Shown here: piece after piece, positions 54,836-62,292 of the stretch
Layout: the number at the start of each line of letters is the position of its first letter
Numbering within the stretch: position 1 is the stretch's first letter
NCBI RefSeq assembly: GCF_026340675.1
Contig: NZ_JAPEOX010000002.1
Span: 1,364,001-1,428,000, forward strand
Direction: 5' to 3'
Origin: Streptomyces sp. NBC_01264
Lineage (GTDB): Bacteria; Actinomycetota; Actinomycetes; Streptomycetales; Streptomycetaceae
Length of the DNA: 64,000 nt
Notes under the pieces: model-generated
The model's database searches: none
What the model was told of the DNA's origin: nothing
What the model saw: only the letters and a program-made list of their open reading frames with translations
Program-made: the position numbers and the translations under genes

Positions 54836-55348
54836 CGCTGCCCCCGTAGCCGGGAACGGCATTACGCCGGAAAGAGGACGGTCGGGTACAGCCGACCGCT
54901 TCGGGATGCTTGGCCGCCGGGGGGCGGTCCACGCACGGTGGCAGGAAGGGCTGCTTCCAGGCCGGATAGTCATCACTACGGTCGGCGGCCCGGCGTTGCG
55001 TCGTCGCCTCGGCGGCCGGCGGTGCCTACGGACGGCAGTGCCCGTCCGGGCGGCGCGGAAGCAAGGTCGGCGGACCCGCATGGGCGACGCCGCGCCCTCA
55101 GTGTGCGCGGCGGCAGGCCACATGAGCATCTCGACCCTCTGGCGGCCTGGTGGTGCGCTTCCCGCCAGGGCTGATCACCACCCGACACCGATTGATTACG
55201 GGAAGCGGTCCGGGGCAGACACCCCGGCCGTTCGCTCGATACGGTGTAAGGAACGCGTCAAAAATGGCGCGCGGTGTGCCGGGAAGTCTGGTCGGCGTCC
55301 CGGGGGCAGTGTGCCCTCTCGTCGCTGACACACCGGAGGCCCACTGCC
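54836..55348. other. 513-bp region ahead of nhaA
   Basis: No credible gene. It begins with a 400-bp stretch with nothing I can support and ends with the structured nhaA leader (55272-55339, listed separately). A promoter for nhaA is likely around 55195-55250, where A/T-containing sequence (GATTACGGG, GATACGGTGTAAGG) occurs. Confidence 0.55.
55272..55339 (+). ncRNA. Candidate structured leader (riboswitch-like) of nhaA
   Basis: Three consecutive stems can be drawn by hand. P1 is CGGTGTG 55272-55278 with CACACCG 55329-55335; P2 is CCGGGA 55279-55284 with TCCCGG 55298-55303 (loop AGTCTGGTCGGCG); P3 is GGGCA 55304-55308 with TGCCC 55312-55316 (loop GTG). All pairs are perfect and the stems abut. 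The 3' strand of P1 runs into the GGAGG (55335-55339) of nhaA, ten bases before its ATG, so pairing could hide or free the ribosome site. Li+ riboswitches (nhaA-I and nhaA-II) are known before nhaA elsewhere; whether this is one is untested. Confidence 0.55.
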
Positions 55349-56668
55349 ATGGCCGGCACCCGCTCCCCATTCCTCGGACTGCTCCCCCTGCCCGAGCGGC
55401 AGGCGATCACCCGCGCCCTGCGCACCGAGACCGTCGGCGGCCTGGTCCTCCTCGGCGCGGCCGTCCTCGCACTGATCTGGGCCAACAGCCCATGGAGCAC
55501 GGCGTACGCCTCCGTACGCGACTTCCACTTCGGGATACCGGCCCTCGGCCTGGACCTGTCCGTGGGCCACTGGACGGCCGACGGGCTCCTGGCCGTGTTC
55601 TTCCTCGTCGCCGGCATCGAGCTCAAACGCGAACTGGTCGTCGGAGAACTGCGCACCCCGGCCACCGCCGCGCTCCCCGTGATCGCCGCCCTGTGCGGCA
55701 TGGCCGTACCCGCCACCCTCTACCTGGCCACCACCACAGCGGGCGACGGCAGCAGTGCGGGCTGGGCGGTCCCGATGGCCACCGACATCGCCTTCGCCCT
55801 CGCCGTCCTCGCAGTGCTCTCCACCCACCTGCCAGCCGCGCTGCGCGCCTTCCTCCTGACCCTCGCCGTGGTCGATGACCTGGGCGCGATCCTGATCATC
55901 GCGGTGTTCTTCACCTCCAACCTGAACCCGTGGACGCTCGCCGGAGCCTTCGCGGGCCTGGTCCTCTTCTACCTGCTCCAGCGGCTGCGGGTGCGCGGCT
56001 GGTGGTGGTACGTGCCCCTCGGGCTGGCGATCTGGGCGCTGATGTACAACGGCGGCGTCCACGCCACCGTCGCCGGAGTAGCCATGGGCCTCATCCTGCG
56101 CACCACCCGCGACAAGGGCGAAGAGGTCTCACCCGCCGCCCGGGTCGCGCACCTGGTCCACCCGTTCTCCGCCGGGATCGCGGTGCCGCTGTTCGCGCTC
56201 TTCGCCGCCGGGGTGAGCATCTCCGGCCCGGCCCTGGGCGCGGTGTTCACCAGCCCCGAACCCCTCGGCGTGGTGATCGGCCTGGTGGCCGGAAAGACGC
56301 TGGGGATCTTCGCCGGAACCTACCTGGCCGCCCAGTTCACCCGCGCCCAGCTCAACCCCGACCTCGCCTGGGCCGACGTGCTCGGCCTGTCGGTACTGGC
56401 CGGGATCGGCTTCACCGTCGCCCTCCTCATCGGGGAACTCGCCTTCCCCGGCACCCAGACTGGCGAGCACGTCAAGGCCGCCGTCCTCGTTGCCTCTCTG
56501 ATCGCCGCCGTCCTCGCGGCCATACTGCTGCGCAGGCGCAACACCGTCTACCGGCGCCTGTACGAGGCGGAGAACCTCGACGCCGACAACGACGGAATCC
56601 CCGACATCTACCAGCACTACATCGAGCCCGCAGGCAACGCCGCTCCTACGGACGGGAAGCACATCTGA
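55349..56668 (+). CDS. nhaA: Na+/H+ antiporter NhaA
   Basis: A 439-residue antiporter with about 12 membrane helices. LIWANSPW and GHWTADGLLAVFFLVAGIELKRELV open the protein. GWAVPMATDIAFALAVLAVL and LTLAVVDDLGAILIIAVFF carry the conserved Asp pair of the NhaA ion site (VVDDLGAI). LSVLAGIGFTVALLIGELAF is the terminal signature. It exports Na+ or Li+ in exchange for H+. The C-terminal ~50 residues are soluble, with DADNDGIPDIYQHY, a Ca-loop-like sequence. ATG 55349 has GGAGG ten bases before it and a possible riboswitch-like leader. Confidence 0.95.
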   Translation: MAGTRSPFLGLLPLPERQAITRALRTETVGGLVLLGAAVLALIWANSPWSTAYASVRDFHFGIPALGLDLSVGHWTADGLLAVFFLVAGIELKRELVVGELRTPATAALPVIAALCGMAVPATLYLATTTAGDGSSAGWAVPMATDIAFALAVLAVLSTHLPAALRAFLLTLAVVDDLGAILIIAVFFTSNLNPWTLAGAFAGLVLFYLLQRLRVRGWWWYVPLGLAIWALMYNGGVHATVAGVAMGLILRTTRDKGEEVSPAARVAHLVHPFSAGIAVPLFALFAAGVSISGPALGAVFTSPEPLGVVIGLVAGKTLGIFAGTYLAAQFTRAQLNPDLAWADVLGLSVLAGIGFTVALLIGELAFPGTQTGEHVKAAVLVASLIAAVLAAILLRRRNTVYRRLYEAENLDADNDGIPDIYQHYIEPAGNAAPTDGKHI

Positions 56669-57033
56669 TGGCTGGCAGTGACGCCCCACTGCTGGCGCCC
56701 GTGATCGTCATCGCCGCCCTGGCCATCAGCACGGCCGTCACCGAGCTCCGACATCCGGGCAGTGCCCGGCGGCAGTGGGCGTTCACCACCAGCCCCCAGG
56801 CCATGGCGGCCGGTGCGACGGTCGCCGCGGCCACGGCCACGGCTCACTGTCGTCAGCTGAGGTTCAGACGAGGTGCAAGGCCTGAGCCTCTCCCTCTCCC
56901 TGCGGCCGCCGACAGGCGGCCACAGGCGCGTTCGCGACCTTCACTGACCTCGGCTCAGACTGGTCTCCTGACGCACGAATGCCCCGCCGGAGAGGCGGAG
57001 CATTTTTGCGTCGTCGCCGTGAACGGCGCCTGA
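56668..57033 (+). CDS. Possible small ORF coupled to nhaA
   Basis: ATG 56668 overlaps the nhaA stop (TGATG). The product would be 121 residues: a hydrophobic helix (APLLAPVIVIAALAISTAV) and then Ala-, Arg- and Pro-rich sequence with no domain. A hairpin with a T-run at 56978-57007 lies inside the frame, so the end of the ORF is unlikely to be genuine; a shorter original protein ending near 56865 or no protein at all are alternatives. Confidence 0.3.
   Translation: MAGSDAPLLAPVIVIAALAISTAVTELRHPGSARRQWAFTTSPQAMAAGATVAAATATAHCRQLRFRRGARPEPLPLPAAADRRPQARSRPSLTSAQTGLLTHECPAGEAEHFCVVAVNGA
56978..57007 (+). terminator. Rho-independent terminator of the nhaA transcript
   Basis: AATGCCCCGCC (56978-56988) pairs with GGCGGAGCATT (56994-57004) with one mismatch around a five-base loop, followed by TTTTT (57003-57007). 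It is among the few classical intrinsic terminators with a T-run in the window. Confidence 0.8.
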
Positions 57034-61768: not shown

Positions 61769-61783
61769 GGCGAATTCCTCTCC

Positions 61784-61942
61784 GACGCCTGCGAGGTGAG
61801 CTGTCGGGTTCGGACTGGAGATGTCCGGCCGCCCCTGTGCCGGTGAACAGCACATGTACGGCTTCACCCCGAGCTGTCCCGTTGTAAAGATCTCAACCGG
61901 AGATCCGGAACAGCGGCCTACCTGGTTCCCCCGCTCCTGCCG
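61784..61942 (-). ncRNA. c-di-AMP riboswitch (ydaO/yuaA type)
   Basis: On the minus strand the leader carries the conserved pieces in order: GAGCGGGGGAACCAGGTAGG, CTCGGGGTGAAGCCG and CCGAACCCGACAGCTCACCT followed by CGCAGGCG, just upstream of the LysM/M23 gene (ATG 61768). These match the ydaO-type aptamer, which in Actinobacteria precedes wall-hydrolase and resuscitation genes and turns them off when c-di-AMP is high. The boundaries are approximate. The ribosome site lies about ten bases beyond the 3' end. Confidence 0.85.
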
Positions 61943-62292
61943 CGCGCGTGAATAGTCGGGTGCGGTTTCCGGTCGGCGGCAGGATTAGGCGGTCCGTCCG
62001 GATCGATCGCGAACGTAATCGAGTCCGGCCGCACGGAACAAGTCATGAATTCCCCAACAGAATCTTGAAGATGACGGGCCGCCGGAATTCCGGTCACCCT
62101 GCGTCCATTCCGCACCTTCAACAACCGCCCCAGCAAGGCAATTCGCCATTCGCGATCAGGCACTCACCGTCACCGTATGATCTGGCTCACGGGGGCATGT
62201 CCGATCTCGCCTGTCGCTATGGCAAGTTGCCCATAACTGGCGTAATTCGGACACCACCGACGACGAAGACCACCACCACACGGAGGAGCCCG
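61943..62292. other. Divergent control region, peptidase / phosphatase
   Basis: This 350-bp gap holds the promoter of the riboswitch transcript and that of the phosphatase gene. It is notably A/T-richer than its surroundings (for example around 62140-62250). A nested dyad, TGTCCGA 62198-62204 with TCGGACA 62247-62253, encloses CGCC/GGCG and TATGG/CCATA pairs. No gene is supported. Confidence 0.55.

What the first reader, a model, noticed from the sequence alone, without database searches (positions are those of the whole stretch)
55272..55339. Hand-foldable three-way junction in the nhaA leader that touches the ribosome site
Seen: three perfect, abutting stems (7, 6 and 5 bp) within 64 nt, the closing stem running into the GGAGG of nhaA. 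Known: nhaA is regulated by Li+ riboswitches (nhaA-I, nhaA-II) in other bacteria, and Na+ riboswitches exist. Inferred: this may be a translational ion-sensing leader in a Streptomyces, either a divergent member of a known class or a new one.
Basis: partly seen in the sequence, partly recalled or inferred. Interest (0 to 1): 0.78.

Follow-up and report, generated by a model that had tools for sequence, protein, structure and literature searches.

The report
Widespread salt-gene RNA switch candidate
A 25-letter RNA hairpin at the start of messages for sodium pumps recurs almost unchanged in two bacterial phyla and appears to compete with structures that would switch the gene off, so it looks like an undescribed sodium-sensing riboswitch.

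Summary
Beneath them lies a conserved 25-nt block, GGNGN-GCCGGGAAGNCUGGUCGGC-N (window 55273-55297). This genome has seven near-exact copies, all before Na+/H+ antiporter genes, one of them a remnant. A model matches 101 of 148 Actinomycetes genomes (96 strongly) and 12 of 151 Chloroflexota strongly. Some 72-75% of downstream genes serve Na+ or K+ transport. The block forms a hairpin with compensatory changes at three of four pairs. Competing helices use it: in Actinomycetota its 3' half pairs near the ribosome site (>=8 bp in 51 of 225 leaders, 2.7 expected); in Chloroflexota it is the 5' arm of terminators (10 of 17, 0.1 expected). No Rfam family reaches its threshold there. Best reading: an undescribed riboswitch class, probably for Na+, hairpin formed = gene ON. 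No ligand was tested, and a computed ribosome-site accessibility test went the other way.

The parts
55273..55297 (+). Conserved 25-nt motif GGTGT-GCCGGGAAGTCTGGTCGGC-G (numbered -5..-1, 1-19, 20)
   Evidence: pattern and model searches in own genome, genus, class, phylum and Chloroflexota; located in the window
55278..55281 (+). 5' arm of the core hairpin (GCCG), pairs with 55293-55296
   Evidence: compensatory changes at 3 of 4 pairs across 67 distinct sequences, 0 of 500 shuffles reach the covariation score (with two suspected chance rows added)
55293..55296 (+). 3' arm of the core hairpin (CGGC)
55282..55292 (+). Hairpin loop GGAAGTCTGGT; nearly invariant except position 10 (55287), which can be any base
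   Evidence: several searches fixed these bases, so their invariance is partly by selection; others (up to 2 mismatches; model) allowed departures
55291..55296 (+). 5' arm (GTCGGC) of the competing helix (anti-stem), overlapping the 3' half of the core
   Evidence: complete in 21 of 33 Streptomyces leaders; enrichment in 225 Actinomycetota leaders
55324..55329 (+). 3' arm (GCTGAC) of the competing helix, five bases upstream of the ribosome site
   Evidence: part of the best fold
55304..55316 (+).
   Evidence: pairs GGG/CCC present in 33, 32 and 27 of 33 rows
55335..55339 (+). Ribosome-binding site GGAGG of nhaA
55349..56668 (+). nhaA, Na+/H+ antiporter, 439 aa, the gene presumed to be controlled
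   Evidence: Pfam Na_H_antiport_1, E 1.2e-130
55240..55245 (+). TACGGT, -10-like box of this copy (inferred from sequence only); 27 bases lie between it and the motif, against usually 7 in other copies
   Evidence: sequence; spacing in other copies

Best explanation
A cis-acting RNA switch. The 25-nt motif folds into a short hairpin whose conserved loop and 5' GGNG probably form the binding pocket; in most copies outside Streptomyces it is probably the first RNA made, starting at or next to the transcription start (starts inferred from promoter boxes). If it stays folded the gene is ON; if not, part of it is taken into a competing helix: an intrinsic terminator in many Chloroflexota copies, or a helix ending at or just upstream of the ribosome site in Actinomycetota. 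From the genes, the signal is most likely a rise in cytoplasmic Na+, which the hairpin would bind. Shown by comparison: conservation, hairpin covariation, competing helices, gene set. Inferred: the ON direction in Actinomycetota, ion sensing, Na+ as ligand, and a choice made while the RNA is being copied.
For: Seven copies with at most one mismatch in this genome: four before nhaA genes (one with a shifted frame), one before an nhaA remnant, two before Na_H_Exchanger genes, a different family; 9 background sites with 3 mismatches gave 8 ORFs, none an antiporter. Downstream gene, named sample of 123 ORFs: NhaA 69, Na_H_Exchanger 12, CBS 5 (4 of them followed by a CitMHS/ArsB-type transporter), CitMHS 2, TrkH 1, Na_Ca_ex 1. 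Phylum sample of 87: NhaA 49, Mrp-type 10, P-type ATPase 2, Na_H_Exchanger 2, H_PPase 1, CitMHS 1. Two permeases tested match the K+ transporter KimA. Hairpin covariation. The pair just outside it (-1/20) is U.G, C.A or A.C in 222 of 287 and Watson-Crick in 20, with the highest mutual information of all column pairs. Competing helices: >=8 bp ending near the ribosome site in 51 of 225 leaders against 2.7 in shuffles; terminators in 10 of 17 Chloroflexota copies against 0.1. Of 7 leaders with a changed core arm, 4 have a downstream partner that covers and matches the changed base (L103, L129, L206, L281). A -10 box TANNNT lies in range in 194 of 311 copies against 33 in shuffles.
Against: No ligand, expression or start-site data were available. 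Treating the motif as occupied lowered, not raised, computed ribosome-site accessibility (-0.090 against -0.016 with shuffled linkers, 225 leaders), so the translational arm is not supported by RNAfold. RNAfold gives the core hairpin zero probability in the window copy and a cost of 10-12 kcal/mol, and 4-21 kcal/mol in 17 other leaders: it can win only with a ligand or by forming first. In the window clade the anti-stem varies only G-C to G-U and does not exceed shuffles. 7 of 17 Chloroflexota copies have no terminator by my rule, and 6 of the 10 that do are near-identical relatives. Some downstream genes have no obvious Na+ link (PPDK_N 3, alpha/beta hydrolase 3, DUF2254 1 of 123; DUF2254 3 of 87). 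The -1/20 signal weakens when each distinct 25-mer counts once.
Confidence: 0.6

Rival explanations
1. Same RNA switch, different signal: K+ shortage, Li+, pH or a small molecule that reports salt or osmotic stress.
For: The gene set also includes TrkH and TrkA_N (1 each of 123) and KimA-like K+ permeases, and antiporters serve pH homeostasis; two known nhaA-linked riboswitches sense Li+ (PMC9646797, passages and one section seen). The -1/20 pair prefers U.G and C.A, and C.A is protonation-sensitive (general knowledge).
Against: A rise in Na+ explains the widest share (NhaA, Mrp, exchangers); a K+ sensor would not explain NhaA in this sense; Li+ is rare (inference).
Confidence: 0.22
2. The hairpin is the binding site of an RNA-binding protein that itself senses salt, rather than an aptamer.
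For: A 25-nt hairpin with an invariant loop is of typical protein-binding size (general knowledge); the large predicted cost of the core would need strong stabilisation.
Against: Two phyla with near-invariant sequence would require an equally widespread protein; no RNA-binding family stands out among the downstream genes. Not otherwise tested.
Confidence: 0.12
3. A DNA operator overlapping the transcription start, bound by a transcription factor.
For: Imperfect palindrome; preferred distance to the -10 box in most copies outside Streptomyces.
Against: Competing helices and terminators built from the motif, partner changes following arm changes, non-Watson-Crick preference at -1/20; in loci of the window's genus only 13 of 74 copies have the box in range while the motif is kept.
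Confidence: 0.04
4. The reader's P1-P3 junction, or a divergent nhaA-I, nhaA-II or Na+-I riboswitch.
For: Gene context.
Against: Junction not conserved; no such Rfam match.
Confidence: 0.02

Closest known systems
Na+-I riboswitch (DUF1646 motif) and the rare Na+-II variants
   Same: Leader RNAs of Na+ transport genes; Na+-I switches genes on when Na+ rises (PMC9646797 section 5; PMC9337991 passages).
   Different: [quoted passage not shown] ours is one 4-bp hairpin within 25 nt, in Actinomycetota and Chloroflexota, without an Rfam match.
Li+ riboswitches nhaA-I (Li+-I) and nhaA-II
   Same: Most often upstream of nhaA.
   Different: No covariance-model match; our motif also precedes Mrp, exchanger, KimA-like and ABC genes.
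c-di-AMP (ydaO) riboswitch
   Same: Controls KimA-type K+ transport in Bacillus (recalled); one copy lies in this same window at 61771-61968, minus strand.
   Different: 134-position model; no match in the nhaA leader.
preQ1-type small aptamers
   Same: Very short hairpin aptamers with a terminator or ribosome-site platform (recalled).
   Different: Other genes; no Rfam match in the leader.
dauA motif of Streptomyces (SRC-36-1)
   Same: Streptomyces leader motif, three-stem junction including the ribosome site (PMC11109978 passages).
   Different: 57 representatives in Streptomyces, before STAS genes; the figure is not held, so sequences were not compared.

Membership tests
nhaA-I / nhaA-II / DUF1646 (Na+-I) riboswitches | Match to the Rfam covariance model | tested here: not met
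   none in the window at gathering score, none in the leader at E <= 10, none in 20 other loci at E <= 1
nhaA-I / nhaA-II / DUF1646 (Na+-I) riboswitches | Located upstream of Na+ or Li+ transport genes | tested here: met
c-di-AMP riboswitch | Match to the RF00379 model | tested here: not met
   found elsewhere in the window, not in the nhaA leader
Riboswitch (general) | Conserved structured element in the 5' leader of related genes | tested here: met
Riboswitch (general) | Expression platform mutually exclusive with the aptamer | tested here: met
   terminators in 10 of 17 Chloroflexota copies; anti-stems in Actinomycetota; by sequence only
Riboswitch (general) | Platform changes ribosome-site accessibility in the expected direction | tested here: not met
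   RNAfold test went the other way; a crude test without ligand or kinetics
Riboswitch (general) | Direct ligand binding without protein and ligand-dependent gene control | not testable with these tools
   needs probing and reporters

The most novel reading that the evidence does not exclude
An undescribed class of alkali-ion riboswitch, present in about two thirds of sampled Actinomycetes genomes, whose aptamer is only about 25 nt (one hairpin plus GGNG, usually at the very 5' end of the message, with a U.G/C.A outer pair), controlling Na+/K+ homeostasis genes of two phyla as an ON switch, by terminators in Chloroflexota and at the ribosome site in Actinomycetota.
Probability: 0.55. Interest if true: 0.92.

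Novelty: new variant of a known kind. Interest (0 to 1): 0.83.

Why it matters
If right, it supplies a sensor for Na+ (or a related signal) in Streptomyces and most Actinomycetes, explains how unrelated antiporter families are co-regulated, and offers a very small natural aptamer, which makes ion selectivity by RNA open to direct structural study.

Tried and rejected
Rejected: the P1-P3 junction. A two-tier G-quadruplex over the G tracts: the GTC..GAC and GCT..AGC variants break the 17-18 tract while keeping pairing. Membership of Rfam families (SpF10 22.9 bits and sR35 10.1 bits near the window motif, radC 29.3 bits in L087, all far below their gathering scores). Phage carriage: exact pattern absent from viral contigs. 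Other phyla: 1 of 200 genomes in the phylum of a Mesorhizobium genome, namely that genome itself, chosen because it had a hit (no ORF found after it), and 1 of 149 in the phylum of a Paenibacillus genome, weak (E 0.0025). The SD-release model was tested and not supported by RNAfold. A first, cruder duplex test gave a weaker signal (mean z -0.78; 40 of 210 below -2 against 5, 11 and 16 for decoys).

Rows dropped before counts: 15 of 178 instances lacking GG.G before the core, two of 69 distinct 25-mers (L123, L335) as suspected chance matches, restored (98.9% of cells paired instead of 100%), loci L335, L123, L260, L349, L388, L339, L343 left out, of which L339 and L343 later looked genuine, 3 of 36 leaders, 69 of 294 Actinomycetota leaders without a recognised ribosome site and start. 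ORF choice was by a length and codon-position rule and errs in some rows; 2 of 125 sites gave no ORF. Pfam tallies are per family and assume that the families counted do not share members.

Literature: exact motif words searched found no relevant paper; topic searches. Weinberg 2017 (224 motifs) is not held and was not read; that its motifs are in Rfam is recalled. PMC6429828 (passages) says that four motifs before sodium-associated genes had been reported earlier; I know three of them (nhaA-I, nhaA-II, DUF1646) and could not check the fourth. Papers seen in passages only: PMC9646797 (plus section 5), PMC9337991, PMC11109978, PMC11701678, PMC3765725, PMC6429828; the rest as search listings.

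Full report
The finding. All three stems exist at the stated places. They are not the best fold of that stretch (-26.9 against -34.5 kcal/mol), and in 33 leaders of the same nhaA clade from Streptomyces they are complete in 2, 4 and 3 cases, with no more pairing than shuffled columns. So the drawn junction is a property of this copy and its nearest relative.

What is really conserved. Upstream regions of nhaA in the genus share a block that overlaps the junction. In this 10.7-Mb genome the 19-mer GCCGGGAAGTCTGGTCGGC has 5 exact and 2 one-mismatch copies, none with 2 mismatches, and 9 with 3 (the reversed control pattern gives 10 with up to 3). The 7 near-exact copies lie before four nhaA genes (one with a shifted frame), an nhaA remnant and two Na_H_Exchanger genes. 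The 9 background sites gave 8 ORFs, none an antiporter.

Spread. With up to 2 mismatches the core is in 149 of 150 genomes of the genus (some 2-mismatch sites are chance; the reversed control hits many of these genomes once or twice) and in 97 of 296 of the phylum. A pattern that leaves the stem arms free but requires GG.G before the core is in 102 of 396 genomes of the phylum. A model of the 25-mer matches 101 of 148 genomes of the class at E <= 0.1, all but five of them at E < 1e-4; 12 of 151 in the phylum of a Ktedonobacteraceae genome at E <= 2.1e-5, followed by a gap to 0.04; 1 of 200 in the phylum of a Mesorhizobium genome, the chosen centre itself; and 1 of 149 in the phylum of a Paenibacillus genome, weakly.

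Genes. Of 123 downstream ORFs in the named sample 69 are NhaA, 12 Na_H_Exchanger, 5 CBS, 3 ABC, 3 PPDK_N, 3 alpha/beta hydrolase, 2 CitMHS, and 1 each TrkH, Na_Ca_ex, TrkA_N, DUF2254 and others. Four of the five CBS genes are followed by a CitMHS/ArsB-type transporter. Of 87 in the phylum sample 49 are NhaA, 10 Mrp-type, 3 DUF2254, 3 CBS, 2 P-type ATPase, 2 Na_H_Exchanger, 2 ABC, 1 H_PPase, 1 CitMHS. Two permeases tested, one from each sample, match the solved K+ transporter KimA (E 5.7e-18 and 2.3e-19). NhaA, exchanger, CitMHS, TrkH, Na_Ca_ex and the four CBS operons make 89 of 123; NhaA, Mrp, P-type, exchanger, H_PPase and CitMHS make 65 of 87. The set is what a cell needs to throw out Na+ and take up K+.

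Hairpin. In 67 distinct 25-mers the arms 1-4 and 16-19 pair in all 268 cells, with changes on both sides at three pairs in 9 cells; no shuffle of 500 reaches the covariation score, and sliding the partners destroys it. Adding the two rows I had set aside as chance gives 98.9% of 276 cells. The variants include GTC..GAC, GCT..AGC, GGC..GCC and TCC..GGA; the two TCC..GGA sites precede ABC transporter reading frames and have a -10 box at the usual distance. Just outside the stem, positions -1 and 20 are U with G, C with A or (4 cases) A with C in 222 of 287 and Watson-Crick in 20, with the highest mutual information of any column pair (0.50 bits, shuffles at most 0.064). U.G and C.A are wobble pairs of one shape (general knowledge). 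Kinship inflates this: with each distinct 25-mer counted once the counts are U.G 16, C.A 13, A.A 9, A.G 6, U.A 5, others 17.

Position. The commonest spacing between a TANNNT box and the first G of the motif is 7 bases (112 sites; 6 or 8 bases in 53 more, of 311 copies); 194 of 311 copies have a box in the allowed range against 33 in shuffles (the position labels printed there are one base off). So in most copies the message probably begins at or next to the motif. Loci of the window's genus mostly lack a box at that distance (13 of 74 have one in range, against 181 of 237 elsewhere); the window copy has a box-like TACGGT 27 bases before the motif (sequence only).

Competing structures. In Actinomycetota, leaders contain 7-nt complements of positions 10-20 of the motif 2.3 to 4.4 times more often than shuffles; positions -2 to 7 are depleted, while the extreme 5' end (-5 to 2) is also enriched, 26 of 294 against 11.8. 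A helix of at least 8 bp between positions 9-20 and a stretch ending within 10 nt of the ribosome site occurs in 51 of 225 leaders (2.7 expected), of at least 6 bp in 132 (31 expected); for the motif's 5' part as decoy the figures are 31 against 57 at 6 bp. Typical is CUGGUC with GACCAG-GAGG. Of 7 leaders with a changed core arm, four (L103, L129, L206, L281) have a downstream partner that covers and matches the changed base; in L101, L120 and L131 it does not cover it. In the window the anti-stem is 55291-55296 with 55324-55329; it is complete in 21 of 33 clade members, but varies there only between G-C and G-U, so that alignment alone does not prove it. In Chloroflexota the competitor is an intrinsic terminator whose 5' arm is the motif itself: 10 of 17 copies against 0.1 in shuffles, up to 11 bp (GGAGUGCCGGG with CCCGGCACUCC, then a U run); six of the ten are near-identical leaders, the other four use different parts of the motif. 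The two phyla thus tend to block the same hairpin from opposite sides, which is hard to explain unless the hairpin is the functional state. A folded hairpin must prevent the terminator, hence ON.

Against. RNAfold finds the core hairpin unfavourable (window copy: cost 10-12 kcal/mol; 17 other leaders 4-21), so it must be held by a ligand or win by forming first; both are inference. When I blocked the motif, computed ribosome-site accessibility fell by 0.090 (0.016 with shuffled linkers), contrary to a simple release model. The translational step in Actinomycetota is therefore open: the helix may act by position rather than by covering the site, or RNAfold may mislead in these G+C-rich leaders. 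Seven of 17 Chloroflexota copies had no terminator by my rule. A minority of downstream genes has no evident Na+ role.

Known families. No Rfam 15 family reaches its threshold there. The Na+ and Li+ riboswitch papers do not hold the words Actinobacteria or Streptomyces in the main text. PMC11109978, which analysed Streptomyces avermitilis among others, and PMC6429828 do not hold nhaA or antiporter in the main text; the latter mentions four earlier motifs before sodium-associated genes, one of which I could not identify. Exact-word searches found nothing relevant. Subscription papers and Weinberg 2017 were not available. On that basis I call it undescribed as far as searched.

Verdict. The most likely truth is a widespread, undescribed riboswitch class of two phyla serving Na+/K+ homeostasis, Na+ being the best guess for the ligand.

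Noticed in passing
window 61771-61968, minus strand: A c-di-AMP (ydaO) riboswitch by Rfam (60.7 bits, gathering 38), 5 kb from the nhaA gene: two salt-related RNA elements close together.
   Followed up: no
window 56668-57033, plus strand: A small ORF whose start overlaps the nhaA stop codon; no Pfam match. Similar reading frames follow other nhaA copies of this genome (L038; L053 7023-7718).
   Followed up: partly
L038 (own genome C1:1980370) and L037 (C1:1897302): The motif still stands before an nhaA remnant with a large internal deletion and before an nhaA with a shifted frame; whether the latter is real or a sequencing error is not known.
   Followed up: partly
L139, L140, L144, L238, L252, L261, L267, L280, L301: Motif copies before STAS, Crp-like, PEP-synthase/rifamycin-phosphotransferase-like and alpha/beta-hydrolase genes: possible regulon members without an obvious ion role.
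   Followed up: no
L211, L227, L293, L303: CBS-domain gene followed by a CitMHS/ArsB-type transporter after the motif: a candidate Na+ transport operon with a CBS regulator.
   Followed up: partly
window 55250-55272 and the same place in several accessory nhaA leaders (L004-L023): An extra CGCG(TC)..(GA)CGCG repeat lies between the box-like sequence and the motif and could form a 5' stem.
   Followed up: no
L260 2465-2483: A full match with GG.G context in a Mesorhizobium contig, the only genome hit of 200 in its phylum; no ORF found after it, chance or transfer undecided.
   Followed up: partly
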